Part shown: piece by piece, positions 10,642 to 50,602 of the stretch
Layout of the letters: every line of letters begins with the position of its first letter
Position numbering within the stretch: the stretch's first letter is position 1
Source of the DNA: an uncultured Bacteroidales bacterium
GTDB lineage: Bacteria > Bacteroidota > Bacteroidia > Bacteroidales > UBA932
Reading direction: 5' to 3'
NCBI GenBank assembly: GCA_900316955.1
Contig: ONEX01000011.1
Location: 88,665-152,664, forward strand
DNA: 64,000 nt
Position numbers and translations under genes: made by a program
Notes under the pieces: model-generated
Databases searched by the model: none
Seen by the model: the letters and a program-made list of their open reading frames with translations, nothing else
Told to the model about the DNA's origin: nothing

Positions 10642-10667
10642 GTCATGCCCGACCTGATCGGGCATCT
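10642..10667. repeat. Dispersed palindromic element (GTCATGCCCGA type)
   Basis: Copy of the dispersed palindrome family: GTC, then ATGCCCGA / TCGGGCAT arms around a 5-nt loop, then CT. It sits between the parS-like site and the ruvA stop. The following CTTTT could let it work as a terminator for mnmG. Confidence 0.7.
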
Positions 10668-10676
10668 CTTTTAAGC

Positions 10677-11264
10677 TTACAGCTTCTTGAGGGCGGCTTT
10701 GATGAGGTCTTCGACGCGAGGGTTGGGGTTGTCCTTGAGGAGGGAGGGCATGACTTTGGAGATGGCCGCCTTGCTGAAGCCGAGCATCACCAGGGCCGTG
10801 GTGGCCTCGTCGACAATGGCGTTGTTGTCGGACTTGAAGATAGCGGTGTTGTCGGTGCCGGCGCCCTTGACGATCTTGTCCTTGAGTTCCAAAACCAGGC
10901 GCTGGGCGCTCTTGAGGCCGATTCCCTTGACACTTTTGATCCGGGCGATGTTCTCGGAAAGGATGGCCTGGCGGATTTCGTCGGAGGTCAGGGAGGACAA
11001 CATCATGCGGGCGGAGGCGACGCCGATGCCGGAGACGCCGATCAGGAGACGGAAGAGTTCCCGCTCGTCCTTGGTGGCGAAGCCGAAGAAGAGTTCTTCG
11101 TCCTCGCGGATATAGTGGTGGATATAGGCGACGGCCTGGGTTTGGAGCTGCAGGGCTTCGTAGGTCTGCAGGGAGATGAGGATGCTGTAGCCGATGCCGC
11201 CGCATTCGAGGATGAGCTCGGCGGGCGTCAGCTCAATGATTTGTCCTTTAATATAATCAATCAT
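10677..11264 (-). CDS. ruvA: Holliday junction branch migration protein RuvA
   Basis: 195-residue RuvA, the tetrameric DNA-binding partner of the RuvB motor. Domain I is an OB fold (MIDYIKGQI...), domain II has two helix-hairpin-helix motifs (GVSGIGVASA and VKGIGLKSAQ, about residues 75-85 and 112-122), and domain III is the short C-terminal RuvB-binding helix bundle. Its -7 box abuts the ATG, so the mRNA is probably leaderless. It diverges from sufS and converges on mnmG. Confidence 0.96.
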   Translation of the reverse strand: MIDYIKGQIIELTPAELILECGGIGYSILISLQTYEALQLQTQAVAYIHHYIREDEELFFGFATKDERELFRLLIGVSGIGVASARMMLSSLTSDEIRQAILSENIARIKSVKGIGLKSAQRLVLELKDKIVKGAGTDNTAIFKSDNNAIVDEATTALVMLGFSKAAISKVMPSLLKDNPNPRVEDLIKAALKKL

Positions 11265-11268
11265 AACG

Positions 11269-11299
11269 CAAAAATATGTAAATTTGCAGACTTATCAAA
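11269..11299 (-). promoter_or_regulatory. ruvA promoter (TTTG-N19-TATTTTTG)
   Basis: On the minus strand a -33 TTTG (11296-11299) and a -7 TATTTTTG (11269-11276) are spaced 19 nt. The ATG begins 4 nt after the -7 box. Confidence 0.75.
11279..11286 (+). promoter_or_regulatory. sufS -7 box
   Basis: TAAATTTG on the plus strand, 18 nt before the sufS ATG. It lies within the spacer of the divergent ruvA promoter, so the two promoters physically overlap. Confidence 0.6.
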
Positions 11300-11304
11300 G
11301 AAGT

Positions 11305-12531
11305 ATGACGGTACATGAAATCAGAAGCCAGTTCCCCGCCCTGGCGCAGCAGGTGTACGGAAAGCCGCTTGTCTATCTGGACAATGCGGCGACCGCGCAG
11401 CGGCCCTTGGCCGTGCTCGAGAAGGAGCGCACGCTGGCATCGACGCTGAACGCGAACATCCATCGTGCCGTGCATAAGCTGGCGGCCGATGCGACGGAGG
11501 AGTACGAGCGGACGCGGGAGATCGTGGCCGATTTCCTGAATGCCGAAAGCCCGAAGGAGATCGTGTTCACCTCGGGCACGACGATGTCCATCAACCTCGT
11601 CGCGTCCTGCTTCGGGGAGGCGTTCGTCGGGGAAGGAGACGAAATCATCGTGTCCGTCGCCGAGCACCATTCGAACATCGTTCCCTGGCAGCTCCTCTGC
11701 CAGCGGAAAAAGGCGGTGCTCAAAGTCCTTGAGATTGACGAATTCGGCGGCCTGATGGTCGAGTCCCTCCAAAAATTGATTTCTCAGCGCACCAAAATTA
11801 TAGCCATCTCTCACATTTCCAATGTGTTAGGGCTTGTAAATCCGGTGCAGGAAATCATCCGGATTGCGCATCATAACGGGATTCCGGTCCTTGTGGACGG
11901 CGCGCAGGGGAGCATTCACGCAAAAGTCGACGTCCGGGAGCTGGACTGCGACTTCTACGCGTTCTCCGGACACAAGGTGTATGGCGCGACCGGCACCGGC
12001 GTGCTGTACGGAAAGAAAAAGTGGCTCGAGGCGATGCCGCCTTACATGGGCGGGGGAGAGATGATCGAGACGGTCCGGTTCTCCGGAACCACCTATGCGC
12101 CGGTCCCCGGCAAGTTCGAGGCGGGCACCCAGAATTTCAATGCCGTCCCGACCTTGCAGGAGGCGCTCCGGCTCGCCCGGCAGTTCCAGGAGGACCCCGA
12201 GGTTGCGCAGCGCGAATGGGCCATCACCCATTATCTGCTGGAAGCCTTGACGGCCGATCTCCGCATCCATCTGTACGGTGTTCCTCGTGGAACGCAGGTG
12301 AAAGTGCCGCTCTTTTCCTTCACGGTCGAGGGCGCGCACCACGAGGACCTGGCGCTGATCCTGGACAAGATGGGCATCGCCGCCCGTTCCGGCCAGATGT
12401 GCGCCGAGCCGCTGATGGACCACTTCGGCGTCACCGGCATGCTCCGCGTCTCCTTCGCCCCGTACAACACGATGGAGGAGGCGGAATACTTCGTGAAGTG
12501 TTTGAATAAAGCGATTTCGATGTTGATATGA
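11305..12531 (+). CDS. sufS: Cysteine desulfurase SufS
   Basis: 408-residue PLP enzyme that takes sulfur from cysteine for Fe-S cluster assembly. The PLP lysine lies in SGHKVYGATGTG (about residue 223) and the persulfide cysteine in RSGQMCAEP near residue 372, the SufS (group II) arrangement. I chose ATG 11305 because MTVHEIRSQFPAL is the family start and the -7 box lies before it. A degenerate parS-like palindrome is embedded at 12279-12294. It overlaps the next gene by ATGA, which matches its function with SufE as sulfur acceptor. Confidence 0.95.
   Translation: MTVHEIRSQFPALAQQVYGKPLVYLDNAATAQRPLAVLEKERTLASTLNANIHRAVHKLAADATEEYERTREIVADFLNAESPKEIVFTSGTTMSINLVASCFGEAFVGEGDEIIVSVAEHHSNIVPWQLLCQRKKAVLKVLEIDEFGGLMVESLQKLISQRTKIIAISHISNVLGLVNPVQEIIRIAHHNGIPVLVDGAQGSIHAKVDVRELDCDFYAFSGHKVYGATGTGVLYGKKKWLEAMPPYMGGGEMIETVRFSGTTYAPVPGKFEAGTQNFNAVPTLQEALRLARQFQEDPEVAQREWAITHYLLEALTADLRIHLYGVPRGTQVKVPLFSFTVEGAHHEDLALILDKMGIAARSGQMCAEPLMDHFGVTGMLRVSFAPYNTMEEAEYFVKCLNKAISMLI
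12279..12294. other. Degenerate parS-like site (inside sufS)
   Basis: TGTTCCTCGTGGAACG has two differences from the perfect site at 10620. It is the third such sequence within 2 kb and is the weakest. Confidence 0.35.
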
Positions 12532-13343
12532 CATTAGAAGAGAAAAAACAGGCGGTCATCGAGGAGTTCTCGATGTACGACGAGTGGCTGGACAAGTACG
12601 AGTACCTGATCGAGCTCGGAAAGGCCCTGGAGGCCTATCCGGAGGAGCAGAAGACGGAGGAAAAGCTCATCAAGGGCTGCCAGTCGCGCGTGTGGCTGGA
12701 CTATGAACTGAAGGACGGGAAGCTGTATTTCCGGGCCGACAGCGACGCCATCATCACCAAGGGCATCATCTCGCTGCTGATCAGCGTCTATTCTGGCCGC
12801 ACCCCGGCGGAGATCGCCGCAGACGATTTCGGCTTCATCGACCGGATCGGCCTCAAGGAAAACCTGTCCCCGACCCGCGCCAACGGGCTTGTGTCGATGA
12901 TCGACACGATCAAGAAAGCGGCAAACGAAATGGCCGCCCAGGAAAAGATGGCCGATCAGGTCGGCCATGACGATAAAAATGTCCTCACCGCGGAGGACGT
13001 GGCGGCGCTGCAGCCGCTGTATGCCGATGTGATCCTGGCCCTGAAGCAGGTGTACGACCCGGAGATCCCGGTCAACATCTACGACCTTGGACTCATCTAC
13101 GAGCTGAACATCGACAAGGACCGCAAGGTGTCCATCGTGATGACCTTCACGGCCCCGAACTGCCCGATGGCGGACGAGGTGATGCACGAGGTGGAGGACA
13201 GCGTGAAGCGGGTGCCCGGCGTGACGGGCTGCTCGATCGAGCTGACCTTCGAGCCGGTCTGGGACCGCAGCATGCTGTCCGAGGAGGCCCGCGTGGACCT
13301 GGGCCTCGACTACGAAGAGGACGATTACGGGAAGCTGAGCTAG
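12528..13343 (+). CDS. sufE: SufE-DUF59 (SufT/MIP18-like) fusion protein
   Basis: 271-residue fusion. Residues 1-~135 are SufE, which accepts the persulfide from SufS; the catalytic cysteine lies in LIKGCQSRVWL (about residue 49). Residues ~160-271 are a DUF59/MIP18 domain (VYDPEIPVNIYDLGLIYEL and the conserved Cys in TAPNCPMAD), a family linked to Fe-S carrier and target maturation. In other Bacteroidales these are usually two neighbouring genes. The joint contains the peptide MADQVGHDD, encoded by a dispersed palindromic element (12946-12971), so the element may have bridged two genes. I see no in-frame start at the joint that would restore a separate DUF59 gene. Overlaps sufS; folK follows after 3 nt. 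Confidence 0.9.
   Translation: MTLEEKKQAVIEEFSMYDEWLDKYEYLIELGKALEAYPEEQKTEEKLIKGCQSRVWLDYELKDGKLYFRADSDAIITKGIISLLISVYSGRTPAEIAADDFGFIDRIGLKENLSPTRANGLVSMIDTIKKAANEMAAQEKMADQVGHDDKNVLTAEDVAALQPLYADVILALKQVYDPEIPVNIYDLGLIYELNIDKDRKVSIVMTFTAPNCPMADEVMHEVEDSVKRVPGVTGCSIELTFEPVWDRSMLSEEARVDLGLDYEEDDYGKLS
12946..12971. repeat. Dispersed palindromic element inside the sufE-DUF59 gene
   Basis: Same family in inverse orientation: AGATGGCCGA ... TCGGCCATGAC around a short centre. It is translated in frame as KMADQVGHD at the linker of the fusion protein. A near-identical copy lies at 13842. Confidence 0.85.
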
Positions 13344-13346
13344 CCG

Positions 13347-13829
13347 ATGGCGTTCGTGAGCGTATATCTGGGCCTCGGCTCCAACCAGGGGAACCGCCTG
13401 CAGAATCTGACGCAGGCGCTGGACCTGCTGGACGCCGCGTTCGGATGCCACTACACGGCGCTGTCCCGGATCATCGAGACCAAAGCGTGGGGGTTCAAGG
13501 GCGATAAGTTCCTGAATGCCTGCGTGTTATACCGGATTTTCAAGAAGGGGACACCCGAGGAGCACGGCCACGAAATCCTGGCTGTCTGCAAGGACATCGA
13601 GCGCAAGCTCGGCCGGGACGACGCCCCCGAATACGATGCCGACGGCCGCCGCGTGTACCACAACCGCGCGATCGACATCGACATCCTTTTTTACGGCAAG
13701 GAGCGCATCGACTGCGAGGACCTGCAGGTCCCGCATCCGCTCATCGCGGAGCGCGATTTCGTGAAGATCCCCCTCGCCGAAATCGCGAAACCCTCGCTGA
13801 AAGCGACGTTTCCCGAATATTTTATGTAA
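13347..13829 (+). CDS. folK: 6-hydroxymethyl-7,8-dihydropterin pyrophosphokinase
   Basis: 160-residue HPPK, which transfers pyrophosphate from ATP to hydroxymethyldihydropterin in folate synthesis. The N-terminal YLGLGSNQGNR and the signature RAIDIDILFYG (near residue 112) are present, followed by VPHPLIAERDFVKIPLAEI. The ATG lies 3 nt after the preceding stop, so it is co-transcribed with the suf genes. Confidence 0.93.
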   Translation: MAFVSVYLGLGSNQGNRLQNLTQALDLLDAAFGCHYTALSRIIETKAWGFKGDKFLNACVLYRIFKKGTPEEHGHEILAVCKDIERKLGRDDAPEYDADGRRVYHNRAIDIDILFYGKERIDCEDLQVPHPLIAERDFVKIPLAEIAKPSLKATFPEYFM

Positions 13830-13834
13830 TTTTG
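13827..13834 (+). promoter_or_regulatory. glyS -7 box
   Basis: TAATTTTG fits TAnnTTTG and overlaps the last codon and stop of folK. The transcript would carry an ~85-nt leader containing two palindromic elements. Confidence 0.5.
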
Positions 13835-13841
13835 CAGGCTT

Positions 13842-13868
13842 AGATGGCCGATCAGGTCGGCCATGACG
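13842..13868. repeat. Dispersed palindromic element, glyS leader copy 1
   Basis: AGATGGCCGA ... TCGGCCATGACGA, nearly identical to the copy inside the sufE-DUF59 gene about 900 nt upstream. Confidence 0.8.
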
Positions 13869-13877
13869 AAAGAGAAC

Positions 13878-13903
13878 GTCATTCCCGGCTTGACCGGGAA
13901 TCT
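13878..13903. repeat. Dispersed palindromic element, glyS leader copy 2
   Basis: GTCATTCCCGG ... CCGGGAATCT, the opposite orientation to the copy 10 nt upstream and of a different sequence subtype. The pair forms two successive hairpins before the glyS ATG. Confidence 0.8.
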
Positions 13904-13929
13904 GGAAAGAAAACAAATGTTTTAGTGAT

Positions 13930-15468
13930 ATGACACAGGATGAACTTTTCAAAGTGCTGGTAGCCCACTGCAAGGAGTACGGCTTCGTTTTCCCCTCCAG
14001 CGAGATTTATGACGGCCTCGCCGCCGTGTATGATTACGGCCAGATGGGCGTCCAGCTCAAGAACAACATCAAGAACTATTGGTGGGAAGCGATGACCCGC
14101 CTGCACGAGAACATCGTGGGCATCGACTCCGCCATCTTCATGCATCCCCGCATCTGGGAGGCTTCCGGCCACGTGGGCGCCTTCAACGACCCGCTCATCG
14201 ACAACAAGGACTCCAAGAAGCGCTATCGCGCCGACGTCCTGATCGAGGATTTCCTCGGCAAGATCGAAGAGAAGATCAACAAGGAGGTCGCCAAGGGCCG
14301 CAAGCGCTTCGGCGATTCCTTCGACGAGGCCCAGTTCCGCGCGACGAACCCCAACGTCCTGCGCGAGCAGGCCAAGTGGGATGAGGTCCACAACCGGTAC
14401 GTGGCCGCCGAGAAGGCCAACGACCTCGCCGAGTATCGGCAGATCATCATCGACAACAACATCGTCTGCCCCATCAGCGGCACCTGCAACTGGACGGATG
14501 TCCGCCAGTTCAACCTGATGTTCCAGACGTCCATGGGCTCCACCGCCGACGGCGCGAACATCATCTACCTGCGTCCGGAGACCGCCCAGGGCATTTTCGT
14601 CAACTACCTGAACGTCCAGAAGACCGGCCGCATGAAGATTCCGTTCGGCATCGCGCAGATCGGCAAGGCCTTCCGCAACGAGATCGTCGCCAGGCAGTTC
14701 ATCTTCCGCATGCGCGAGTTCGAACAGATGGAGATGCAGTTCTTCATCAAGCCCGGCACGGAGCTCGACTGGTTCGCCAAGTGGAAGGAGGCCCGCATGA
14801 AGTGGCACGTGAACCTCGGCATGGGCGCGGAGAACTACCGCTTCCACGACCACGAGAAGCTGGCCCACTACGCCAACGCCGCTACCGACATCGAGTTCAA
14901 CTTCCCGTTCGGCTTCAAGGAGCTCGAGGGCATCCACAGCCGCACGGACTTCGACCTCGGGAACCACCAGAAGTTCTCCGGCAAGAAGATCGAATACTTC
15001 GATCCGGAGGAGAACGTGTCCTACACCCCGTACGTCATCGAGACGTCCATCGGCGTGGACCGCATGTGCCTCGCCGTCATGGCCCATTCCTACACCGTCG
15101 AGAAGCTCGAGAACGGCGAGGAGCGCGTCGTGATGAAGATTCCCGCCCCGCTCGCCCCGATCAAGGTGGCCGTGATGCCGCTCGTGAAGAAGGACGGCCT
15201 GCCCGAGGTGGCCCAGAAGGTGGTCGACGAGCTCAAGTACGACTTCTCCTACCAGTACGACGAGAAGGATTCCATCGGCAAGCGCTATCGTCGCCAGGAT
15301 GCCATCGGCACCCCGTTCTGCGTGACCGTGGACCACGACACCCTCGTCGATGGCTGCGTCACCGTCCGCGACCGCGACACGATGACCCAGGAGCGCGTGA
15401 AGATCGAAGATCTCCGCGCGATGATCGATAAGAAAGTCTCCCTGACGAATCTCCTGCGGAATCTGTAA
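13930..15468 (+). CDS. glyS: Glycine--tRNA ligase (alpha2 type)
   Basis: 512-residue class II synthetase of the dimeric, eukaryote-like kind. Visible parts are YDYGQMGVQLKNNI near the N terminus, motif 2 around FRNEIVARQFIFRMREFEQ (about residues 251-269), the glycine-pocket region IGVDR (about 374) and the C-terminal anticodon-binding domain from about residue 400. The leader carries two palindromic elements. Its terminator overlaps the promoter of the next gene. Confidence 0.95.
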   Translation: MTQDELFKVLVAHCKEYGFVFPSSEIYDGLAAVYDYGQMGVQLKNNIKNYWWEAMTRLHENIVGIDSAIFMHPRIWEASGHVGAFNDPLIDNKDSKKRYRADVLIEDFLGKIEEKINKEVAKGRKRFGDSFDEAQFRATNPNVLREQAKWDEVHNRYVAAEKANDLAEYRQIIIDNNIVCPISGTCNWTDVRQFNLMFQTSMGSTADGANIIYLRPETAQGIFVNYLNVQKTGRMKIPFGIAQIGKAFRNEIVARQFIFRMREFEQMEMQFFIKPGTELDWFAKWKEARMKWHVNLGMGAENYRFHDHEKLAHYANAATDIEFNFPFGFKELEGIHSRTDFDLGNHQKFSGKKIEYFDPEENVSYTPYVIETSIGVDRMCLAVMAHSYTVEKLENGEERVVMKIPAPLAPIKVAVMPLVKKDGLPEVAQKVVDELKYDFSYQYDEKDSIGKRYRRQDAIGTPFCVTVDHDTLVDGCVTVRDRDTMTQERVKIEDLRAMIDKKVSLTNLLRNL

Positions 15469-30675: not shown

Positions 30676-30694
30676 ATCCTTCTCGGTTTGAACC

Positions 30695-30727
30695 AAAGGA
30701 CCGGCTCCCTCGAGCCGGTCCTTTTTT
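30695..30727 (+). terminator. secDF terminator
   Basis: A 13-bp perfect stem (30695-30707 with 30712-30724), 4-nt loop and T-tract to 30727. A strong intrinsic terminator. Confidence 0.9.
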
Positions 30728-30754
30728 CTGTCTTAGGCGATTAGGAGAGATGTA

Positions 30755-30960
30755 AGGGGAGGGTGGCGCGACGGCTCCATGCGTCTTTCAGCGGCTACGC
30801 CCAGGTCGGGAAGGCGCTTGACGGCGAACTCGCTCAGTTAGTCCCGCAAGCGGGCCTAACTAGCGCTCAAACAGACGCCGTCATCCCTCACGGGACCGCT
30901 GCCTTCCCTCCCGCTCGCTGGCGCTGAAAGCCGAATTCCGCCGTCGCGCCACCCTCCCCT
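30755..30960. repeat. Nested long inverted-repeat element, left of helicase gene
   Basis: A 206-nt stretch of five nested complementary segments. The outer arms 30755-30775/30940-30960 are 21 bp and perfect. Inside them come CTTTCAGCG/CGCTGAAAG (30785/30922), GGGAAGGC/GCCTTCCC (30808/30901), GACGGCG/CGCCGTC (30820/30876), and a terminal hairpin GTTAGtCCCG/CGGGcCTAAC (30837-30860). The whole folds into one long branched or bulged stem. No protein is plausible. It occupies most of the gap between secDF and the helicase gene; the rest (30961-31162) is A/T-richer and shows no gene. Confidence 0.85.
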
Positions 30961-31162
30961 CTGAACACCACCGTCCTGCTCTCGGAGTAGGGCTGGTTGA
31001 GTAAAAAGCGTTATGTCGTACGCAAAAGGGGGCCAAACAAAAAGGGGGGCGTCGTTTCTTTCAGATTGATCAATGAAAAAAATGTATTCTCTCTCGGCTC
31101 TTCAAGGAGAAAGAGGTTACCAAATTCTGTTCTTTGAGGGCGAAGTCGTTTTGTGGGCAATG

Positions 31163-31193
31163 TTGTATAATTATCGCGGTTTTCGTATTTTAG
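31163..31193 (+). promoter_or_regulatory. Helicase gene promoter candidate
   Basis: TTG (31163-31165), 20-nt spacer, TATTTTAG (31186-31193), one base off the -7 consensus. The ATG follows after 4 nt, which would make the mRNA leaderless. Confidence 0.5.
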
Positions 31194-31197
31194 CAAT

Positions 31198-33921
31198 ATG
31201 TTAGAGGGACAAATCAGGAGTATTCCTGAATCATTGTATATCGTCAAGGGAAAGCTGTATTCAAATGTTGTGGCTGTCCGCGGGACGACGTATTATGGAA
31301 ATCCGGTCTTATGTGTAACGTTTAGGGGGCGGTCTGGAAACTATTGCCGGAATTATAATCAAGAGGACGTGAAGCATTTGCCGTTCAAGAAGTCCATAGA
31401 CGGCAACTTCCGCTTTAAGGATCAGAATGGAAAGTTTTGTCTAGCGGTTCGTCTTCACCTGTATGTGCCGGATGTCGTTTGTGCGGAATCCAAATCCGGT
31501 TTCCTTTCTTTTGGCTACTTGAAGGATATGGAGATAGAGGAGTCGCTTCTAGACAAGCGTCCGGTTCCGGTATACGAGTACCTCAAATCCCTCTCGGTTC
31601 TTAGTTCGATGACCGGAGAGGATGGCAAGACGGCCTCACTTAGGGACAAGTATGACAACAATCGGTTCGTTTTCCGAAAGGCGTTGTTGTATGATTACTG
31701 CGAGCCTGGCGGTTTTAAAAACCTGCAGGCGGAATGCCCCTCGTTAGTATTTCCGTTCGGCTTTAATGCGAGTCAGTATAACGCAGTTAGGAATGCTTTT
31801 CAAAATCGATTGTCTGTCATTGAAGGGCCTCCTGGAACGGGGAAGACACAAACAATTCTAAACCTTCTGGTTAACCTCATTATACGGGGAAAAACATGCC
31901 TCGTTGTGTCGAATAATAATTCGGCCGTTGAGAATGTGGTCGAGAAACTGTCGAAACCCGAATACGGTTTTGGGTTTCTCGTTGCTGTGCTGGGTAAATC
32001 TGCAAATCGTCATGACTTTCTGGAAAGCCAGACTGGGTTTTTGCCGGAGTTGTCTTCTTGGAAAGTGACGGAGGCAGAGTTCCACAGGATGAAGGAGAAC
32101 CTCCATTATGTTTCGGCAAAACTACCGACATATTTCGAATCCCTTGAAAGGTTGGCCATCCTAAAAGAACGCGTGGCTGATCTGGGACATCAGTTGTCTA
32201 TGACGGGAGAGGATTTGCCGGTCAAGCGCCCGAAGTCTCCAGGAATTACGAGGCTCTCGTCTAAATCGATATACTCCCTCCTTGTCAGGATGGATGCCGA
32301 AAGGGAGCGAAATGGGGCATTGGGGCTGATAACGAAGTTTTTGTGCCTTCTTAATGGATTTGGCAAGAATCCGGACAGGGATGTAATGGAGCGTCTTGCC
32401 AGAAGGCTTGATTACTATGAAGCGGAAACAGAGTGCTATCGTCTACAAAGGGAGACGGACGCTTTTAAGCCTTCGTATGATTCGTTTACGAAGGATTCCC
32501 TGGCATTTTTCAAGGGCGTCCTTTATAAACGTTATAATGGTGGCGGGAGGAGGGTTTTTTCGTCGGAAGACCTTTTATTCAAGAACGCACAGGGCTTTCT
32601 CAAGGAGTATCCGGTCGTTACCAGTACGACATTCTCGGCCACTGCCTGCATAGATCAGGCAGTTCCGTTTGATTACCTGATTATGGACGAGGCTTCCCAG
32701 GTAGATATTGTTTCCGGCGCCCTTGCATTGAACACGGCGCTTTCAGCCGTGATCGTTGGCGACAGAAGACAATTGCCGAATGTCGTGACCGAGGAGGACG
32801 CCGCGTTCGCCAGGAACGCCCATCAGCGTAGCGGCCTTCCGGGCGCATATAGTTATGTTGAGAATAGCTTTTTGGACTCAGTCCTTTCCTTGTTTCCGTC
32901 AACACCGACGGTTCTTTTGAGGGAGCATTACCGTTGTGCCCCCGACATAATCGGGTTCTGTAACCGTCAGTTCTATGGAGGCGAGTTGCTTGTCATGACC
33001 GAAAGAAATGTCGGAGCGCCTTCGGTTTCGGTGGTTAGATCGGTTGTCGGCAACCACGCTTTCGGTTTTGAGAATCGTCGTCAGGGGGAAGAGGTTGTGG
33101 AGGCTGTTAGAGAAATCCATAAAGACTGCCAAGACATCGGCATTATCACTCCTTATAAGGATCAAGTGGTACTTATCCACCGATTGCTGGTTGACGCAGG
33201 ATTCAATGATGTTCAAGTGGCGACGGTCCACAAGTTCCAAGGACGGGAAAATGATGCCATCATTCTTTCGACGGTATCGAATTCGGTGAATGATTTCATC
33301 GATGATCCACATCTTGTCAACGTCGCAGTTTCCAGGGCGAAAAAGCGATTTGTGTTAATCATTACAGGGAACGATCTCGGTGAAGGAAATCTAAAGGATC
33401 TTGTTGGCTATATTACCTATTGCGGTGGCGCTGTTCGCGAGAGCGGAATTCGGTCCATTTTTGATCGTCTCTATTCGCAGTATGCTGAAGAAAGAAAAGC
33501 ATATGCGGCATCTCATCAACATCGAATGATCTCGCAGTATGCAACAGAGAACTATATGAATGACCTTCTTTCCGAGATGATCTCAGAAGACCCGTGGAAT
33601 CGTCTCGGCGTCTTGTTTCAGTATCCTTTGACGCTGCTAGTTGCCGCAGGTGCGAAACTGACTGACGAGGAGGCCATTTATGCCGGTAATAGTTGGACGA
33701 AGGTGGATTTCCTTTTGTATGATAAGGTCACTCGTCTGCCTGTGCTAGCTATTGAGGTTGATGGTATGTCGTTTCACCAAGAGGGAAGTGAACAACACAG
33801 GAGGGACCTTTTGAAGAATACTATTCTAGAGAAATCGGGAGTCAAGCTTTTGCGATTATCTACGAGAGGTAGCCGAGAGCGAGAACAGATAAAAAACGCA
33901 TTGGCTTCGTGTGGATATTAG
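31198..33921 (+). CDS. SF1 (Upf1/DNA2-type) helicase with C-terminal DUF2726 nuclease-like domain
   Basis: 907 residues. The N-terminal ~195 residues match nothing I recognise. The helicase core shows motif I GPPGTGKTQT (~210-219), motif II MDEAS (~495), motif III GDRRQLPN (~522), motif V VHKFQGRE (~678) and motif VI VNVAVSRAKKR (~713), the AAA_11/AAA_12 pattern. The C terminus (~825-907) is DUF2726-like: KVDFLLYD ... LAIEVDG, a possible PD-(D/E)XK metal site, then KSGVKLLRLSTR. The gene is clearly AT-richer than its neighbours and is flanked by structured repeats, which points to acquisition. Helicase-nuclease single genes often act in antiviral defence; that role is inferred here. Host repair is the alternative. 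Confidence 0.8.
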   Translation: MLEGQIRSIPESLYIVKGKLYSNVVAVRGTTYYGNPVLCVTFRGRSGNYCRNYNQEDVKHLPFKKSIDGNFRFKDQNGKFCLAVRLHLYVPDVVCAESKSGFLSFGYLKDMEIEESLLDKRPVPVYEYLKSLSVLSSMTGEDGKTASLRDKYDNNRFVFRKALLYDYCEPGGFKNLQAECPSLVFPFGFNASQYNAVRNAFQNRLSVIEGPPGTGKTQTILNLLVNLIIRGKTCLVVSNNNSAVENVVEKLSKPEYGFGFLVAVLGKSANRHDFLESQTGFLPELSSWKVTEAEFHRMKENLHYVSAKLPTYFESLERLAILKERVADLGHQLSMTGEDLPVKRPKSPGITRLSSKSIYSLLVRMDAERERNGALGLITKFLCLLNGFGKNPDRDVMERLARRLDYYEAETECYRLQRETDAFKPSYDSFTKDSLAFFKGVLYKRYNGGGRRVFSSEDLLFKNAQGFLKEYPVVTSTTFSATACIDQAVPFDYLIMDEASQVDIVSGALALNTALSAVIVGDRRQLPNVVTEEDAAFARNAHQRSGLPGAYSYVENSFLDSVLSLFPSTPTVLLREHYRCAPDIIGFCNRQFYGGELLVMTERNVGAPSVSVVRSVVGNHAFGFENRRQGEEVVEAVREIHKDCQDIGIITPYKDQVVLIHRLLVDAGFNDVQVATVHKFQGRENDAIILSTVSNSVNDFIDDPHLVNVAVSRAKKRFVLIITGNDLGEGNLKDLVGYITYCGGAVRESGIRSIFDRLYSQYAEERKAYAASHQHRMISQYATENYMNDLLSEMISEDPWNRLGVLFQYPLTLLVAAGAKLTDEEAIYAGNSWTKVDFLLYDKVTRLPVLAIEVDGMSFHQEGSEQHRRDLLKNTILEKSGVKLLRLSTRGSREREQIKNALASCGY

Positions 33922-33986
33922 TTCCTTAGCATCACCACCGCTACATGTCTGTTCCGCGTTGTCTAATCTTGGTAAACCGATTCCCG

Positions 33987-34018
33987 TTGCGTACAAAAAC
34001 CATTGGAACCGTACGCAA
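33987..34018. repeat. Hairpin TTGCGTAC/GTACGCAA after the helicase gene
   Basis: 8-bp arms (33987-33994, 34011-34018) with a 16-nt loop, 65 nt after the stop. There is no T-tract, so termination is unsure. The 3' arm lies in CGTACGCAAA (34010-34019), which also occurs at 31017-31026 on the other side of the gene. Confidence 0.5.
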
Positions 34019-34107
34019 AGAAAGACCTAAGGTTTAGGGTCGCGAACATCATCGCATCAAAACGTACGCGAATAGTAACCATATAGGATGGTCGGATTGT
34101 GATTGTA

Positions 34108-34293
34108 GGAGGAAGGGAGTACCCTCCCGAAGGCGTGTCCACCCTCGGACACGGGTAGGGGGAGGGGCCCGTTGGATACAAGTTCCCGCCTGGCGGGGAC
34201 GCAGGAGACAATGGGAGGGGCCGGAGCGCAGAGCGGGGTCCCCGCGCGCGGGGTGCTCAAGCGGAGTCCTTCGGGAGGGTACTCCCTTCCTCC
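34108..34293. repeat. Nested inverted-repeat element, right of helicase gene
   Basis: Outer arms 34108-34133 and 34268-34293 are a perfect 26-bp inverted repeat. The 134-nt interior holds a hairpin CGTGTCC/GGACACG (34134-34153) and GC-only palindromes such as CCCGCCTGGCGGG and CCCCGCGCGCGGGG. No gene is seen in 33922-34310. It ends close to the stop of the transporter gene and could end that transcript, but there is no T-tract beyond ordinary length. Confidence 0.85.
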
Positions 34294-34310
34294 CCCTTTC
34301 CTTTGTCCAA

Positions 34311-45836: not shown

Positions 45837-45857
45837 CGGCATTAAATGCTTGACAAA

Positions 45858-46484
45858 ATGAGAATTGCAAAGTTTTTCCTTCTGGCCTCCCTTTTGGTAG
45901 CGGCCGCCGCGTGCGCGCCGAAGCAGCAGGAGGCCGCCTGCCCTTCCGCCCTTGACGTCATTTTCTCCCGCAAGAGCGTCCGCTCCTATACCGACCAGCC
46001 TGTCTCCGACGAGCAGGTGGAGACGATGCTCCGCGCCGCGATGGCCGCCCCGACGGGCATGAACGTCCAGCCCTGGCGCTTCGTCGTCATCCGCGACCAG
46101 GCCGTGAAGGACAAGCTCGCCGGCCCCCGCGGCGGCATGATCGCCCAGGCCCCCGTCGTCTTCGTCATCTGCGGCGAGACCACCCTGATGCGCAAGCCTT
46201 TCGGCCAGCCCGATGCGGAGGCTGTGGAAGTGCCGAACGGCAACTGGACGCAGGACTGTTCCGCCGCGACGGAGAACCTGCTCCTCGCCGCCGAAGCCCT
46301 GGGCCTCGGCGCGGTCTGGACCGCCGCCCATCCCTATGAGGACCGGGTGAACCCCATCCGCGAAGCCCTGGGCCTTCCGGAGAACGTCACCCCGCTCTGC
46401 GTCGTCCCCTGCGGCTACCCCGCCGGTGACGACCAGCCCAAGGACAAGTGGAAGCCCGAGAACATCCACTACGACAAGTGGTAG
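45858..46484 (+). CDS. Nitroreductase-family lipoprotein
   Basis: 208 residues. A lipoprotein signal peptide (MRIAKFFLLASLLVAAAAC, Cys19) precedes a nitroreductase fold: FSRKSVRSYTDQPVSDEQVETMLRAAMAAPTGMNVQPWRFVVI with the FMN-phosphate-contacting RSxR region, then GLGAVWTAAHPYEDR and a C-terminal GYPAGDDQPKDKW. FMN enzymes are normally cytoplasmic, so a lipid-anchored form is noteworthy. I preferred ATG 45858 to 45846 because it starts the signal peptide cleanly. The end overlaps the likely start of the next gene. Confidence 0.88.
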   Translation: MRIAKFFLLASLLVAAAACAPKQQEAACPSALDVIFSRKSVRSYTDQPVSDEQVETMLRAAMAAPTGMNVQPWRFVVIRDQAVKDKLAGPRGGMIAQAPVVFVICGETTLMRKPFGQPDAEAVEVPNGNWTQDCSAATENLLLAAEALGLGAVWTAAHPYEDRVNPIREALGLPENVTPLCVVPCGYPAGDDQPKDKWKPENIHYDKW

Positions 46485-47149
46485 GGGATTGTCATTCCGA
46501 GCCCCGCTCTTGTCATTCCGAGCGTAGCGAAGGAATCTCCCCCTCCGCCTCATTCGTCGTTCGTCCCGCCGTTCCGGCGGACCTCCCCGCCCTGCGGCCC
46601 GTTTTCGAGGCCGCCAAGGGCATCATGCGCGCCGACGGCAACCTCTCCCAGTGGTCCGCCCCCGGCTTTCCCGACGACTCCCTCCTCCTCCGCGACATCG
46701 CCCGCGGAGGAGGTTTTGTCATCGAAAACAGATGGCCGGTCGGAGCCGGCCATGACGAAGGAAACACCGTCATGCCCGGCCGTGTCGCAACCGCCGAACC
46801 CCATCATGATTCCACCGTCATGCCCGGCTTGACCGGGCATCTCGCCGCCCCGCGTATCGTCGCGTACTTCGCCCTCCTCCCGTCCCCCGAACCCACCTAC
46901 GACGTCATCGACGGCGCGTGGCTCACCGACGAGCCGTACGGCGTCATCCACCGGATGGCGAGCTACCCGGAAGTGCATGGAATCTTTTCAACGATCATCG
47001 ATTACGCCGCATCGCGCTATGCGCACCTGCGCATCGACACGCACCGCGACAACCGCATCATGCAGCACCTCATCGAGAAGCACGGCTTCACCTACTGCGG
47101 CATCATCTGGCTCGAAGACGGCACCGAGCGCCTCGCCTACGAGCGCTAA
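46448..47149 (+). CDS. GNAT-family N-acetyltransferase invaded by palindromic elements
   Basis: 233 residues if ATG 46448 is used; a GTG at 46478 is an alternative. The real domain starts near FVVRPAVPADLPALRPVFEAA (~36) and ends with HRDNRIMQHLIEKHGFTYCGIIW, where the acetyl-CoA loop and final strands lie. The N-terminal extension CHSEPRSCHSERSEGIS is encoded by a palindromic element. Between FVIEN (~94) and RIVAYFALL (~138), where related proteins have a short turn, ~40 residues come from three more elements (VGAGHD, TVMPGR, VMPGLTGHL). All keep the frame open. It may still fold, because the insert lies in a beta-hairpin loop, or it may be decaying. Confidence 0.8.
   Translation: MEAREHPLRQVVGDCHSEPRSCHSERSEGISPSASFVVRPAVPADLPALRPVFEAAKGIMRADGNLSQWSAPGFPDDSLLLRDIARGGGFVIENRWPVGAGHDEGNTVMPGRVATAEPHHDSTVMPGLTGHLAAPRIVAYFALLPSPEPTYDVIDGAWLTDEPYGVIHRMASYPEVHGIFSTIIDYAASRYAHLRIDTHRDNRIMQHLIEKHGFTYCGIIWLEDGTERLAYER
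46491..46540. repeat. Dispersed palindromic elements, GNAT 5' copies
   Basis: A truncated copy GTCATTCCGAG (46491-46501) and a full-length copy (46512-46540; GTCATTCCGAG ... CGAAGGAATCT). Both are translated within the N terminus of the GNAT frame. Confidence 0.8.
46732..46759. repeat. Dispersed palindromic element inside GNAT gene (copy A)
   Basis: AGATGGCCGG ... CCGGCCATGACGA, translated in frame as RWPVGAGHDE. Confidence 0.85.
46771..46790. repeat. Half palindromic element inside GNAT gene (copy B)
   Basis: GTCATGCCCGGCCGTGTCGC keeps the left half of the element; the right arm has decayed. Translated VMPGRVA. Confidence 0.55.
46817..46843. repeat. Dispersed palindromic element inside GNAT gene (copy C)
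   Basis: GTCATGCCCGG ... CCGGGCATCTC, translated in frame as VMPGLTGHL. Confidence 0.85.
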
Positions 47150-47177
47150 GGGTTAGGGTTTCAACCTCCTCCCTCGT

Positions 47178-47384
47178 TTGTACAAGTCTCGTTTGTACAA
47201 CCAAACGACCATAGAAAGGGTTTTTTGTGTACAAGTCTCCTGCAAAGAGGCCCAAATTCCCCATTTTTCAAAAGACTTGAACATGAAATACGGTCTGGAG
47301 GGCAATTCTCGTGTACAAGCGAGACTTGTACACGGACAGGACACGTTCACGGACAGGACATGTACACGGACAAGACTTGTACAA
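47178..47384. repeat. TGTACA motif array with tandem and inverted repeats
   Basis: Seven TGTACA hexamers lie in 207 nt (47179, 47194, 47228, 47312, 47327, 47361, 47378), three of them within TTGTACAA. The longer word TGTACAAGTCTC occurs at 47179 and 47228, and its reverse complement at 47321. CGTGTACAAG/CTTGTACACG (47310-47334) is a perfect 10-bp hairpin. Three 17-nt tandem copies (TGTACACGGACAGGACA and variants) run from 47327 to 47377. The array lies between the convergent GNAT and heparinase genes and holds no gene. Confidence 0.85.
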
Positions 47385-47404
47385 GGGAAGGGGTGCTTTT
47401 GGGA

Positions 47405-49321
47405 TTACAGGTCCTTTGACAACCTCACGTGCAGCACGACCTGCTGGTGCGGTTGCAGTGTGAAGGTGAAACCTACGAGCGAGGTGCCGGGATTGGCGAC
47501 GTCGGTCTCGTGCAAATACTGCATCCCATCGACAGCCAACGCCTCCGGGTCGTAGGTCGTGGGCCAGCGGTGTGGGGTGAGGACGGGCGTGTCCGCCTCG
47601 CCGGATTTCGGGGCGTTCGGGAAGAACCGCGAGAGGTAGGGGGCCAGGAATTCGGCCGTCAGTTCGCGTCGATGCGGACCGCTTTGCAGCAGGATGGCGG
47701 ATTCGGCGGGCTCGTGCGGCAGGGAGGCATCGGCCTCGGACGCCATTGCCCAGCGGATGACGCAAGTGGAATCCCCGGCTTGGAGGTGCTCCACGATGTG
47801 GAGGTCCCGGCCGTCGAAGAGCACTTCCCGGAGGTAGTAGGCGAGGTCGTCGTCATACATCGGCCGCAGGTACAGCTCCGCGCCGGCAGGATCCGCGGCG
47901 GACGGCGTGTCCGGCCTCCGCGTGCCGAGGAAGTCTATGACCTGGTTCACCTTGGGGACTTTCCCATTGACAGTCAGGATATTATGGGAGAACGGGCCGA
48001 TGCGGAAGACGGTCCAGCGCTCGCTGTCCTGGAGCATGTCCCAGAGGTCCACGCCCTTCGATTCCAGCGAGTTGTAGTCCTGCATCCCGAGGTCCGTCGC
48101 CCAGGTGACGCCGTCGGATTCGAAGTAGAAGGAGCCCTGGTCCAGGTGCGAATGGCTGGACATCGCGAGGCCGCCCTTGACGCCCAGGTAGTCGTCATCC
48201 TTGGACTCCCAGCCGCTCCGGTACACGAAGACGGGCGTCGTGCCGCCGCACTGGTAATAGCGCCCGGCCGGCGGGTCGATGTGCGCGGGCGCGTCGCCGC
48301 CCAGCGCGATGAGGAACATCGGGAACAGGCGGTCTTCGCACAGCCTGCGGTATCCGGAAGCCTCCATATATCGCAGCTCCGGATAAAGGAAGGAGGCGTC
48401 GCCCGTGTGCCGGAAGATCCAGGCCTGCATGTACTGCCCGTCCGCCCGGCGGTAGGAATCTGAGAAGCTGTAGGAATGGTCGGCCGGGGTCCGGGTGAAG
48501 CGGATGAAGTCGGCCGAGGCGACGAGGGCGGCGAGCCCGGCCTCCGCTTCCGGAGAACGGACGTACCCGTCCTTGAAGGCGCGGTCCAGGGCCGCTTCCA
48601 GCATGATCTGGAACGATGCGCCGTAGCCCCAGTAATTGTAACCTTCGGGATAGCCCCCGCCCGCATAGGCCTTATAGGCCAATTTGTTGGATTCCAGGGA
48701 TTTCTCCAGCATGGACTGACAGAATTCCGGATCCTCCTCCCACACGGCGAGGGCGCCGTACACCATGCCGGCGTTGCACACGGAGTTCCAGTTGTTCTCG
48801 TTGCGGTAGAACCAGGCGTCGGCCTTGTTCCCGGCGGGTTTGAGGCCTTTGTCGATGATCGCCCGGGCGACGGTCTCCCGTTCGGCCGGCGTCATCCGGT
48901 CGTACAGCCAGTCGTAGCCGATGGCGAGGGCCATCGTCATCTCGCCCACGTCCAGGAAATGCGACGGGTTCCAGTCCGGGAACGCGCTGGCGGCCAGCAT
49001 CTCGTCGATGGCCCGCCGCGCATACGCCTCCCCGCCATGGACCCGGTACGTGTATCCGAGCCAGAATGTGCGTTTCAGGACGGTCCGGGAGGTGTGCAGG
49101 AGCCGGCGGCCGATCATGGTCCGTTCCACGGGCGGCTGCTTCAGCGTCTTCCGGCTGAACGAGACGATCACGCTGTCGGCCGCCTTGAACAGGCCTTCCG
49201 TCACCCCCTTCGGCTCTTCCCCCGCCCGCATCAGCAGCCGCGGGTGCGCCCCGGGCTCCTGCGCCCGGACGAGGGTCATCATCCCGAGCAACACCCAGGA
49301 CAGTACGAGTATCCGTCTCAC
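47405..49321 (-). CDS. Heparinase II/III family polysaccharide lyase
   Basis: 638-residue secreted protein. Signal peptide MRRILVLSWVLLGMMTLVRAQ after a GTG start. Residues ~40-350 form the alpha/alpha toroid with NENNWNSVCNAGMVYGAL, and the C-terminal half is the beta-sandwich with SHSHLDQGSFYFES (~414), the conserved His region of Hepar_II_III proteins. Such enzymes cleave uronic-acid-containing polysaccharides by beta-elimination. The neighbouring GH88 would take the unsaturated product. The exact substrate (heparin-like, alginate-like or other) cannot be read. Confidence 0.87.
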   Translation of the reverse strand: MRRILVLSWVLLGMMTLVRAQEPGAHPRLLMRAGEEPKGVTEGLFKAADSVIVSFSRKTLKQPPVERTMIGRRLLHTSRTVLKRTFWLGYTYRVHGGEAYARRAIDEMLAASAFPDWNPSHFLDVGEMTMALAIGYDWLYDRMTPAERETVARAIIDKGLKPAGNKADAWFYRNENNWNSVCNAGMVYGALAVWEEDPEFCQSMLEKSLESNKLAYKAYAGGGYPEGYNYWGYGASFQIMLEAALDRAFKDGYVRSPEAEAGLAALVASADFIRFTRTPADHSYSFSDSYRRADGQYMQAWIFRHTGDASFLYPELRYMEASGYRRLCEDRLFPMFLIALGGDAPAHIDPPAGRYYQCGGTTPVFVYRSGWESKDDDYLGVKGGLAMSSHSHLDQGSFYFESDGVTWATDLGMQDYNSLESKGVDLWDMLQDSERWTVFRIGPFSHNILTVNGKVPKVNQVIDFLGTRRPDTPSAADPAGAELYLRPMYDDDLAYYLREVLFDGRDLHIVEHLQAGDSTCVIRWAMASEADASLPHEPAESAILLQSGPHRRELTAEFLAPYLSRFFPNAPKSGEADTPVLTPHRWPTTYDPEALAVDGMQYLHETDVANPGTSLVGFTFTLQPHQQVVLHVRLSKDL

Positions 49322-49355
49322 TTATCTGCTTGGTTATCAGGTGGTTATTAAAAGT

Positions 49356-49379
49356 TCCCTGGTGCAAATGTACCAGGGA
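49356..49379. promoter_or_regulatory. Inverted repeat over the heparinase -7 box (operator or terminator)
   Basis: TCCCTGGT/ACCAGGGA 8-bp arms around an 8-nt centre. The minus-strand -7 box TACATTTG (49365-49372) lies across the centre and right arm. In the GH88 transcript the same repeat would form a hairpin, so it may end that transcript, or act as an operator for the lyase gene, or both. Confidence 0.6.
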
Positions 49380-49405
49380 GTTTTGCGTAAACGATTGATG
49401 TTTAA

Positions 49406-50602
49406 TCAGTTGGCCGAGACGGGGTACAGCGTCAGCGCCTCGAGGAAATAGTAGTCGGCGTAGGTGAGGGGGACATCGACCTCGGATTTGTTGGGGAGAT
49501 GGCCCACGCTGTGCTTGAGGAGGAAGCCGCCGTTGGTGCGGGGTTCGGCGAGGTATTCCGGCGAGGCGAGGGTGCGAAGGATCCGCTCCGCCGCCCGGAG
49601 CCCCTTGCCGTCATCCTTGGCGCCGCGGTACTCCCGGAGTTTCAGCAGGCCACCGGCGATGATCGCCCCGGCCGAGGCGTCCCGGTAGTCCGTCTGCGAG
49701 AAGTCCCAGAACGGGACGCCGTCCTCGGGAAGGCGGGGCAGCAGCCAGTCTTCCAGCTTCGCGGCGACGCCGTAGAAGGTGTCCGCCAGGTCCATGTGGC
49801 CGGCCTCCTTCTCCTTCAGCGCCATCATCGCGTACCCGTACAGGGCCCATGCCTGGCCGCGCGCCCAGGCCGATTCGTCGGCGAACCCCTGGACCGTCTG
49901 CTTGCCGAGGACCGTGCCGTCATCGGCATAATTGACCAGGTGGTAGCACGTTCCGTCCTCGCGGAAATGGTTCTTCATCGTGGTGAGGGCGTGTTTCTCC
50001 GCCACTTCGCGGTCGCCGTAGTCCATCAGCAGCTCCAGGTTCATCATGTTGTCGATGATGACGGGGAAGTTCCACTTGCCGTGGTCCCAGCTGCGGATGA
50101 CCCCGGCCGTTGGCAGGAACCGGGACGCGAGGGCGGCGGCGCCGCGGGTGAGGACGGAGTCGGGGGAGATTCCTTCACCCCCGAGGAATTCCGGATCGCA
50201 GTCCTGCGCCATCTTGCCGAAGGAGGACATCAGCTGGAAGCCGATGTCATGGTCGGTCTTGTGGTTCAGGAGTTCGGCGAGGGGCAGGGTGTGCTTCACG
50301 GCCAGGTCGCGGAACGCTTCGTCGCCCGTCTGCTCGTACACCATCCAGAGTACGCCCGGGTAGAACCCGCTGCACCACCAGTCGATGTCCGACGTGACCA
50401 GTTTCCCGTCCCGGAAGTTCCGGGGGCAGAGAGAGGGCCGGTCGGGGCCGGCCATGACGGTAAGGAGGCTGTCCATATAAACGGCCTGCGCCTGCGCATC
50501 CGCGAACACGCGCTCGCGTACCTGCGCCATCGTTTCTTCCTTGGGGGCGCGCGCTCCGCACGCGACGGCCGCGAGGGCGGCCAGCAAAAGCAATCTTCTC
50601 AT
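49406..50602 (-). CDS. GH88 unsaturated glucuronyl hydrolase lipoprotein
   Basis: 398 residues, lipoprotein signal peptide ending AVAC (Cys16). The alpha/alpha toroid of GH88 is seen from WWCSGFYPGVLWMVYEQTGDEA (~75). The two catalytic-region Asp residues lie in HDIGFQLMSS (~120) and IIDNMMNLELL (~187), followed by WARGQAWALYGYAMMAL (~250). It hydrates and removes the unsaturated uronic acid made by polysaccharide lyases. Residues ~50-60 (VMAGPDRPSL) are encoded by a palindromic element (50432-50460) placed just before the conserved domain start. A -7 box abuts the ATG. Transcribed toward the heparinase gene. Confidence 0.9.
   Translation of the reverse strand: MRRLLLLAALAAVACGARAPKEETMAQVRERVFADAQAQAVYMDSLLTVMAGPDRPSLCPRNFRDGKLVTSDIDWWCSGFYPGVLWMVYEQTGDEAFRDLAVKHTLPLAELLNHKTDHDIGFQLMSSFGKMAQDCDPEFLGGEGISPDSVLTRGAAALASRFLPTAGVIRSWDHGKWNFPVIIDNMMNLELLMDYGDREVAEKHALTTMKNHFREDGTCYHLVNYADDGTVLGKQTVQGFADESAWARGQAWALYGYAMMALKEKEAGHMDLADTFYGVAAKLEDWLLPRLPEDGVPFWDFSQTDYRDASAGAIIAGGLLKLREYRGAKDDGKGLRAAERILRTLASPEYLAEPRTNGGFLLKHSVGHLPNKSEVDVPLTYADYYFLEALTLYPVSAN
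50432..50460. repeat. Dispersed palindromic element inside the GH88 gene
   Basis: AGAGGGCCGG ... CCGGCCATGACGG, close to the GNAT copy at 46732. On the coding (minus) strand it reads in frame as TVMAGPDRPSL. Confidence 0.8.

What the first reader, a model, noticed from the sequence alone, without database searches (positions are those of the whole stretch)
10642..50460. Family of roughly 26-29 bp palindromes that enters both intergenic space and protein genes
At least nine copies or part copies share the frame GTCAT ... ATCT with GC-rich self-complementary arms (10642, 12946, 13842, 13878, 25947, 46512, 46732, 46817, 50432; partial at 46491 and 46771). Arm sequences differ between subtypes, while each copy stays palindromic. 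Several copies are translated in frame in three unrelated proteins. Palindromic elements that insert in frame into proteins are established for Rickettsia. A comparable family in a GC-rich Bacteroidales would be a notable parallel, with unknown mobility and partner enzyme.
Basis: partly seen in the sequence, partly recalled or inferred. Interest (0 to 1): 0.85.

Follow-up and report, generated by a model that had tools for sequence, protein, structure and literature searches.

The report
Protein-invading palindromic repeats in rumen Bacteroidales
A family of about 27-base DNA palindromes is scattered through this gut bacterium's genome and, unusually, more than half of the copies found sit in frame inside enzyme genes; it belongs to a known repeat superfamily, but here copies differ between sister species, so how such repeats get into proteins can be studied.

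Summary
The window holds seven perfect hairpins (8-bp stem, 5-6 nt loop) in a GTCAT...ATCT frame, one imperfect copy, one copy of a second class and two half copies. The genome holds at least 145. They are CGTC-tagged REPs, a superfamily described in 2013 that already includes Bacteroidetes, Neisseria dRS3 and Rickettsia RPE-4/RPE-6. The Rickettsia 'parallel' is therefore kinship, not convergence.

New here: 82 of 145 copies lie in frame inside 51 called ORFs, among them DHFR, MurB, IspG, MetG, UvrA and ATP synthase gamma. In a sister species 40 of 62 do. Between the two species all 17 non-zero in-gene length differences at these sites are multiples of three, against 3 of 10 between genes. Tandem half copies are spaced by multiples of three in 28 of 28 in-gene and 4 of 14 intergenic cases.

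Sites occupied in one species are empty in another, once as a clean 24-nt insertion (DHFR). A SufE-DUF59 linker carries 0 to 3 palindromes in near relatives. The family has been recently active, filtered by selection for frame and position.

The enzyme is unidentified. Y1 transposase genes are present and co-vary loosely with copy number, but the nearest repeat to any of nine such genes is 772 bp away.

The parts
10642..10667 (+). CGTC-REP between mnmG and ruvA (convergent gene ends)
   Evidence: perfect 8-bp stem, 5-nt loop; of 11 named relatives tried, 8 gave a readable gap and none had the hairpin, 2 gave a zero gap, 1 lacked the flanks
12946..12971 (-). CGTC-REP in frame, linker of the SufE-DUF59 fusion
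   Evidence: translated KMADQVGHD; present, absent or multiplied in near relatives
13842..13867 (-). left half of a head-to-head REP dimer between folK and glyS
   Evidence: among L314-L324 seen only in L314 (= G003)
13878..13903 (+). right half of the same dimer
   Evidence: absent from G003/L314
25947..25972 (-). TGTC-tagged REP at the end of a peptidase-like gene; its edge supplies part of the TAG stop codon
46491..46511 (+). half copy (tag and 5' arm) of the second class
46512..46538 (+). second-class palindrome GTCATTCCGAGC..GAAGGAATCT
46730..46756 (-). CGTC-REP (6-nt loop) in frame in the GNAT-like gene
46769..46781 (+). half copy (tag and 5' arm) in frame in the GNAT-like gene
46817..46842 (+). 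CGTC-REP in frame in the GNAT-like gene
50432..50458 (-). imperfect CGTC-REP in frame in the GH88-like gene
   Evidence: (E 0.07)
12528..13343 (+). sufE-DUF59 fusion gene carrying one REP
   Evidence: Pfam SufE 11-130 and FeS_assembly_P 166-237, REP residues between them
46625..47149 (+). GNAT-like acetyltransferase gene with the palindromes between two conserved parts (reading frame open from 46448)
   Evidence: no Pfam hit; PDB 2pc1 aligns only stretches on either side of the insert, the first of them weakly
49406..50587 (-). GH88-like gene with one REP near its N-terminus
   Evidence: Pfam PF07470 below its cut-off

Best explanation
These are CGTC-tagged REPs: short non-autonomous hairpin elements, alone or as head-to-head (REPIN-like) dimers, that have been copied around the genome and have recently gained or lost sites. 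Shown here: family structure, genome-wide copies, site differences between sister species, and in-frame residence in conserved enzymes. Inferred: the hairpin is moved as single-stranded DNA by an enzyme acting in trans (best candidate a Y1/HUH transposase of the RAYT kind). Insertions land broadly; inside genes only those survive that keep the frame, avoid the frames with stops and fall in linkers or loops. Afterwards the copies evolve by palindrome-keeping arm changes and by tandem slippage of the head half, which in genes is kept only in steps of three bases.
For: Tag CGTC/CCTC/TGTC in 139 of 143 measurable copies, loop 5 in 122 and 6 in 21, tail CT in 133; best stem 8 bp in 139 of 139. 26 of 33 neighbouring pairs are head to head. 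145 copies in the genome, a lower bound because only 150 of 4717 candidates were scored. Copy number in 61 genus genomes runs from 0 to 125, the cap. 82 of 145 copies lie in 51 coding-scored ORFs, 38 sense and 44 antisense; 46 of the 50 ORFs scanned match a Pfam family at E<=0.001, a few below its cut-off, and in 17 by my reading of the tables one match runs right across an element. All 17 non-zero in-gene length differences against the sister G003 are multiples of 3, against 3 of 10 intergenic (p 1.4e-4). Half-copy spacing is a multiple of 3 in 28 of 28 in-gene and 4 of 14 intergenic cases (p 7e-7). Clean 24-nt occupied/empty pair in DHFR. The SufE-DUF59 linker holds 0 to 3 palindromes in proteins otherwise 89-96% identical to the window's. 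Whole dimers are present in one sister and absent in the other.
Against: No enzyme was shown to act on them. Nine Y1 genes lie 772 bp or more from the nearest repeat; in the five whose 450-bp flanks I scanned there are other palindromes or none. G058 has 36 model hits with no Y1 match. Insertion boundaries are not uniform: of nine occupied/empty pairs examined only DHFR is clean. Gain or loss is polarised only for the linker, with moderate tree support. Tail-only fragments (39) are nearly as common as head-only ones (52) by simple patterns, so not all fragments are head halves. The genomes are, as far as titles were seen, metagenome-assembled; there is no strain-level or laboratory data.
Confidence: 0.72

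Rival explanations
1. A resident Y1 transposase (RAYT) of this genus specifically copies these repeats in trans.
For: Within the genus, copy number co-varies with the number of Y1 genes related to L003: Spearman 0.53 in 44 genomes at least 80% complete; 14 of 31 genomes with two or more such genes have 10 or more copies, against 0 of 13 with fewer. Head-to-head dimers resemble REPINs. By the passages I read of PMC8266576, a known TnpA-REP cleaves at CT next to the hairpin, and 133 of 143 tails here begin with CT.
Against: Genomes with many Y1 genes and no copies exist (G068, G033, G081). Nine Y1 genes of the window's genome are 772 bp or more from a repeat and the five scanned have other palindromes or none at their flanks. 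G058 has 36 hits without a Y1 match.
Confidence: 0.35
2. No transposition: sites are old, and differences between species come from loss, slippage and arm correction only.
For: Many sites are shared with the sister species (8 of 25 in-gene clusters have identical length; 9 of 29 clusters from the G003 side are the same); some empty sites hold eroded remnants; in Rickettsia all orthologues were reported to keep an insert at the same sites (PMC3767692).
Against: Genomes of the same genus at 95% or more completeness have zero copies (G013, G022, G033, G065, G068, G074, G076). At sufS-sufE and folK-glyS closely related species have empty, REP, dimer or other-class states at one spot. The DHFR empty site shows no scar.
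Confidence: 0.17
3. The palindromes are transcription terminators or RNA stabilisers kept for that function.
For: Copies at 10642 and 12946 are called terminator-like by a simple scan; of 57 intergenic copies with both neighbours called, 51 lie between convergent or same-direction genes and 6 between divergent ones.
Against: 82 of 145 copies are inside genes and translated, 38 sense and 44 antisense; related species lack many of them. The scan's terminator count (6) is close to its shuffle mean (3.7, sd 2.0).
Confidence: 0.06
4. The encoded peptides are useful, so that insertion into proteins is favoured rather than tolerated.
For: Recurrent insertion at the same linker (SufE-DUF59), 6-nt loops in 20 of 80 in-gene copies against 1 of 63 outside, and more pairing in genes (51 of 80 against 14 of 63).
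Against: Dozens of unrelated enzymes are hit, peptides differ, and the sister species lacks a part of them; frame bias is what purifying selection alone would leave.
Confidence: 0.05

Closest known systems
CGTC-tagged REPs (Di Nocera, De Gregorio, Rocco 2013, PMC3733652)
   Same: CGTC/TGTC/CCTC tag, 8-bp stem beginning with AT pairs, mostly a 5-nt loop (as their family 2), 3-nt tail, head-to-head dimers, intragenic units, no transposase next to them
   Different: tail CTN instead of mostly CCA; 82 of 145 copies in genes here, whereas they state that most REPs are intergenic; occupied and empty sites resolved here between sister species
Rickettsia palindromic elements RPE-4, RPE-6 (RPE-7)
   Same: ATGAC motif (GTCAT reversed), in-frame presence in many enzymes, switch of subtype at one site, exposed loops (PMC3767692, section 12)
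   Different: in Rickettsia all orthologues aligned were reported to carry an insert at the same sites; here empty sites exist in close relatives; RPE lengths in R. japonica genes are 68-192 nt, while in-gene length differences here are 6-102 nt
GTAG REPs with RAYT/TnpA-REP (REPtrons, REPINs)
   Same: hairpin plus unpaired 5' tag, inverted dimers
   Different: GTAG tag and flanking Y1 gene are absent
Neisseria dRS3
   Same: classed as CGTC-1 by Di Nocera 2013
   Different: mostly in large clusters there; 4-nt loop in CGTC-1

Membership tests
CGTC-tagged REP superfamily | unpaired CGTC (or TGTC, CCTC) at one end | tested here: met
   139 of 143 measurable copies
CGTC-tagged REP superfamily | 8-9 bp stem with AT as first two pairs, 4-5 nt loop | tested here: met
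   A-T and T-A first pairs invariant in A3; stem 8 bp; loop 5 in 122 of 143, but 6 in 21
CGTC-tagged REP superfamily | short unpaired 3-nt tail, mostly CCA | tested here: inconclusive
   tail present, but CT-N in 133 of 143; the paper says 'most' fit CCA
CGTC-tagged REP superfamily | head-to-head dimers predominate | tested here: met
   26 of 33 neighbouring pairs, 2 tail-to-tail, 5 head-to-tail
CGTC-tagged REP superfamily | not associated with transposase genes | tested here: met
   for Y1 genes only: nearest repeat 772 bp from one of nine, 1.6 kb or more from the others; other transposases not tested
Rickettsia palindromic elements | in-frame insertion into unrelated protein genes | tested here: met
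   82 of 145 copies; frame test
Rickettsia palindromic elements | insert present in all orthologues at the same site (RPE-4/6/7 as reported) | tested here: not met
   empty sites in sister species
REPtron (GTAG REP with RAYT) | GTAG tag | tested here: not met
   tags are CGTC-type
REPtron (GTAG REP with RAYT) | Y1 gene flanked by the repeat | tested here: not met
REPtron (GTAG REP with RAYT) | enzyme cuts the hairpin as single-stranded DNA | not testable with these tools
   needs biochemistry

The most novel reading that the evidence does not exclude
One unidentified activity recognises only the shared GTCAT...ATCT ends on a folded strand, whatever the arms are, and moves several palindrome classes into the same hot spots. 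In this genus it has become a protein-invading system in which an 8-codon hairpin (24 nt) and its dimers are still entering essential enzymes, supplying them with new loops and linkers.
Probability: 0.15. Interest if true: 0.85.

Novelty: new variant of a known kind. Interest (0 to 1): 0.56.

Why it matters
CGTC REPs were found in five phyla and, by the 2013 survey, have no known transposase; in Rickettsia the in-protein copies studied were reported at the same sites in all orthologues, so the insertion event is hard to see there. Here sister species differ at many sites, inside and outside genes, and one DHFR site is a clean 24-nt insertion. That gives targets for finding the enzyme and for measuring what an inserted 8-residue peptide does to an essential protein. 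It also warns annotators that peptides such as EIPGQAGND, VIPGLTGNL or KMADQVGHD in these proteins are repeat-derived.

Tried and rejected
Chance palindromes: rejected (0.2 expected in shuffles; reversed-pattern control 0 against 52). Spurious ORFs round the in-gene copies: rejected as a general account by Pfam matches (46 of 50 ORFs scanned, of 51) and by the multiple-of-three tests. A REP creating the SufE-DUF59 fusion: rejected. In the tree the ten-member clade (support 1.0) has the REP-free fused L320 as first branch (the other nine group with 0.88), so the fusion came first; one split gene (L321) nests inside it, unexplained. A 24-nt unit selected for divisibility by three: weakened, since 20 of 80 in-gene copies have 6-nt loops (25 nt), against 1 of 63 outside. 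A fixed target site (pre-existing CGTC, or CT at the tail): no rule over nine pairs. AlphaFold of the fusion from nine rows: mean pLDDT 55, not used. Papers: searches listed none that I recognised as describing CGTC REPs in this genus or such a family mostly inside genes; the library holds open-access papers only and I read few of those listed.

What I saw of the papers. PMC3733652: abstract, background, the start of the results, sections 6, 15 and 16, the first part of 17, and passages. PMC3767692: passages and section 12. PMC8266576, PMC6006769 and PMC12306157: passages. Others: search listings only. IS200/IS605 biology beyond those passages, the sense of 'REPIN', and gene names given beyond the Pfam descriptions are recalled.
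Full report
OBSERVATION. Seven are perfect: tag (C/T)GTC, an 8-bp stem starting with A-T and T-A pairs, a loop of 5 nt (6 nt at 46730), and tail CT. One (50432) is imperfect, 46512 belongs to a second class with different arms, and 46491 and about 46769 are half copies. A scan of 20 shuffled sequences finds 0.2 on average. The stems co-vary.

GENOME. The window is contig C33:88665-152664 of a 3.13-Mb genome in 38 contigs. A covariance model built from 21 copies finds 145 copies at E<=1, the two weakest at 0.02 and 0.07. Only 150 of 4717 first-look candidates were scored, so this is a lower bound. Tags are CGTC 99, CCTC 33, TGTC 7, other 4, of 143 measurable copies; loops are 5 nt in 122 and 6 nt in 21; tails begin with CT in 133. 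Of 33 neighbouring pairs with starts closer than 120 bp, 26 are head to head, 2 tail to tail and 5 head to tail.

IDENTITY. These features are those of the CGTC-tagged REPs of Di Nocera 2013 (PMC3733652), except for the tail (CTN against mostly CCA) and the 21 copies with 6-nt loops. That paper already places Rickettsia RPE-4/RPE-6 and Neisseria dRS3 in the superfamily, lists Bacteroidetes, reports intragenic units, and states that CGTC repeats are not associated with transposase genes.

IN GENES. With a small codon-usage gene finder trained on the window (26 ORFs), 82 of 145 copies lie wholly inside 51 called ORFs, 38 sense and 44 antisense. The called coding fraction is 0.89 in 40 stretches. 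In the sister species G003, 40 of 62 hairpins found in 0.99 Mb lie in ORFs. I scanned 50 of the 51 ORFs with Pfam: 46 match a family at E<=0.001, some below the curated cut-off, and 4 match none. By my reading of those tables a single domain match runs across an element in 17 ORFs, among them DHFR, MurB, IspG/GcpE, ATP synthase gamma, a Mur ligase, a tRNA pseudouridine synthase, a RecN-like protein, M16 and M20 peptidases, and an epimerase. In others it lies between two matches (MetG, MetH, UvrA, a UvrA-like ABC ATPase, a radical-SAM methylthiotransferase, AroE, SufE-DUF59); some copies are near a terminus or in proteins without a domain call. In PDB alignments the REP residues fall in gaps (MurB, both sites) or between aligned stretches (IspG, the GNAT-like window protein); in DHFR only four residues of the segment are gapped and the rest is aligned.

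FRAME AS A TEST OF TRANSLATION. Against G003 (flanks 80-99% identical), 35 of 111 clusters could be compared. 17 in-gene clusters differ in length and all 17 differences are multiples of 3; 8 in-gene clusters have equal length; all 10 intergenic clusters differ and 3 differences are multiples of 3 (Fisher p 1.4e-4). Tandem half copies (tag plus 5' arm) are spaced by multiples of 3 in 28 of 28 in-gene and 4 of 14 intergenic cases (p 7e-7). Of 45 spacings found, 3 whose first member is a full copy, all intergenic, were left out. In ten examples printed, half copies mostly lie upstream of a full copy; simple patterns count 52 head-only and 39 tail-only matches beside 109 full ones. In-gene copies have 6-nt loops in 20 of 80 cases against 1 of 63 outside, and are paired in 51 of 80 against 14 of 63. 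So the ORFs are read, and frame-breaking forms are removed.

OCCUPIED AND EMPTY SITES. From the G003 side 29 of 44 clusters could be compared; 9 were the same and 20 differed in length or hairpin number. In 9 of the 20 the window's genome has no hairpin, one of these being a chance hairpin with no length change (L265:15973). In DHFR, G003 reads ..CGTC|GGCGG.. and G000 reads ..CGTC|24 nt|GGCGG..; the net gene difference is 21 because of a separate 3-nt change. Whole head-to-head dimers are present in one sister only, for example at C17:70793 (G000), and in G003 between sufS and sufE and in L252. Arms can differ on both sides at one shared site (C19:15359, C35:45706, C21:44007, C29:24066). Boundaries are otherwise not uniform, so the exact target rule is open.

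THE WINDOW'S OWN SITES IN NAMED RELATIVES. A search of GTDB genomes gave 50 loci; the titles are uncultured or metagenome-assembled Bacteroidales or Bacteroidia, many with ruminant gut sources; one names Candidatus Cryptobacteroides gallistercoris; RUG352 (L314) is evidently G003, because contig length and position agree. The SufE-DUF59 linker in nine fused genes has these states: none in 69 nt (L320); none recognisable, perhaps eroded, in 102 nt (L317); one REP in 99 nt (window, L314, L315, L323; L315 a variant copy); two in 132 nt (L319); three in 150 nt (L316); another class in 129 nt (L318); all in frame. L325, L326 and L327 are REP-free fusions elsewhere in the tree. Between folK and glyS the window has a dimer, L314 one half of it, L315, L318 and L321 other GTCAT..ATCT classes, and L317, L319, L320, L322 and L323 gaps of 16-17 nt. 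Between sufS and sufE the window (10 nt) and seven of eleven relatives (10-13 nt) are empty, L314 has a dimer, L316 one REP, L319 a dimer of another class and L322 a degenerate copy. Two automatic counts over all loci used different filters and each missed some: 5 of 51 and 4 of 51 at sufS-sufE, 7 of 45 and 4 of 45 at folK-glyS; two hits of the first count look like AT-rich chance.

DISTRIBUTION. Of 61 genomes of the genus, 38 have at least one copy at E<=0.001; counts run from 0 to 125, the cap. Of 26 genomes at least 90% complete and at most 5% contaminated, 17 have a match. Outside the genus 3 of 24 genomes have a match at E<=0.01, G058 with 36.

ENZYME. PF01797 finds four Y1 genes in the genome. 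Protein searches give eight matches to L003-type and three to L004-type. Their number correlates with REP number within the genus (L003-type: Spearman 0.53, n=44 at 80% completeness), uncorrected for descent and with capped counts. But of the nine Y1 genes whose places I have, the nearest repeat is 772 bp away (C35:12718), then 1.6 kb (C35:276960), and 4.5 kb or more at the other seven. Of five loci scanned over 450 bp on each side, four have other palindromes, three of them with recurring halves, and one has none. G058 shows copies without a Y1 match in two searches; the second search found nothing in any of 24 genomes, so its reach outside the genus is unproven. I therefore leave the enzyme open, with RAYT action in trans at about one in three.

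MECHANISM, shown and inferred. Shown: family, copy number, differences between species, frame constraint, and position between or outside aligned stretches in three proteins (in part in DHFR). Inferred: copying as a folded single strand, purifying selection as the filter, slippage for half copies, palindrome-keeping correction or conversion for arm changes.

LIMITS. The genomes seen by title are metagenome-assembled; the gene finder is home-made; genome counts are lower bounds; only part of the sites could be compared; no experiment.

Noticed in passing
window 46512; L319, L318, L315 gaps; G000:C38 about 17.8 kb: Further palindrome classes share the GTCAT...ATCT ends but have other arms (GTCATTCCGAGC.., GTCATTTCGAG.., GTCATTCTGAG..) and land at the same spots, also in genes.
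   Followed up: partly
G000:C36:79849 region and C12:1569 region: Another palindrome-like repeat, around GAGCCTGTCGAA with variable arms, occupies the same protein linkers as the REPs.
   Followed up: no
G000 Y1 genes: L001, L002, C36:84406, C35:12718: Y1 transposase genes have their own flanking palindromes (e.g. TGCTCGTACAGGTCC.., CGATGGTGGTCCA..), some with halves recurring in the genome.
   Followed up: partly
window 30676-34310: 3.6 kb with no called gene, with inverted repeats 30755-30960 (39 nt, 87%) and a perfect 26-nt inverted repeat at 34108-34293; no Rfam match.
   Followed up: no
window 47323-47390: Tandem units at 17-nt spacing (GGACA.GT.CACGGACA) downstream of the GNAT-like gene.
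   Followed up: no
window 58440-59873: Gene-poor stretch with tRNA-Met (58517-58591), a 44-nt direct repeat (58612, 58747) and a 34-nt inverted repeat (58818-58904).
   Followed up: no
L321, sufE-DUF59: A split sufE/DUF59 pair nests inside the fused clade (support 0.91), suggesting re-splitting or replacement.
   Followed up: no
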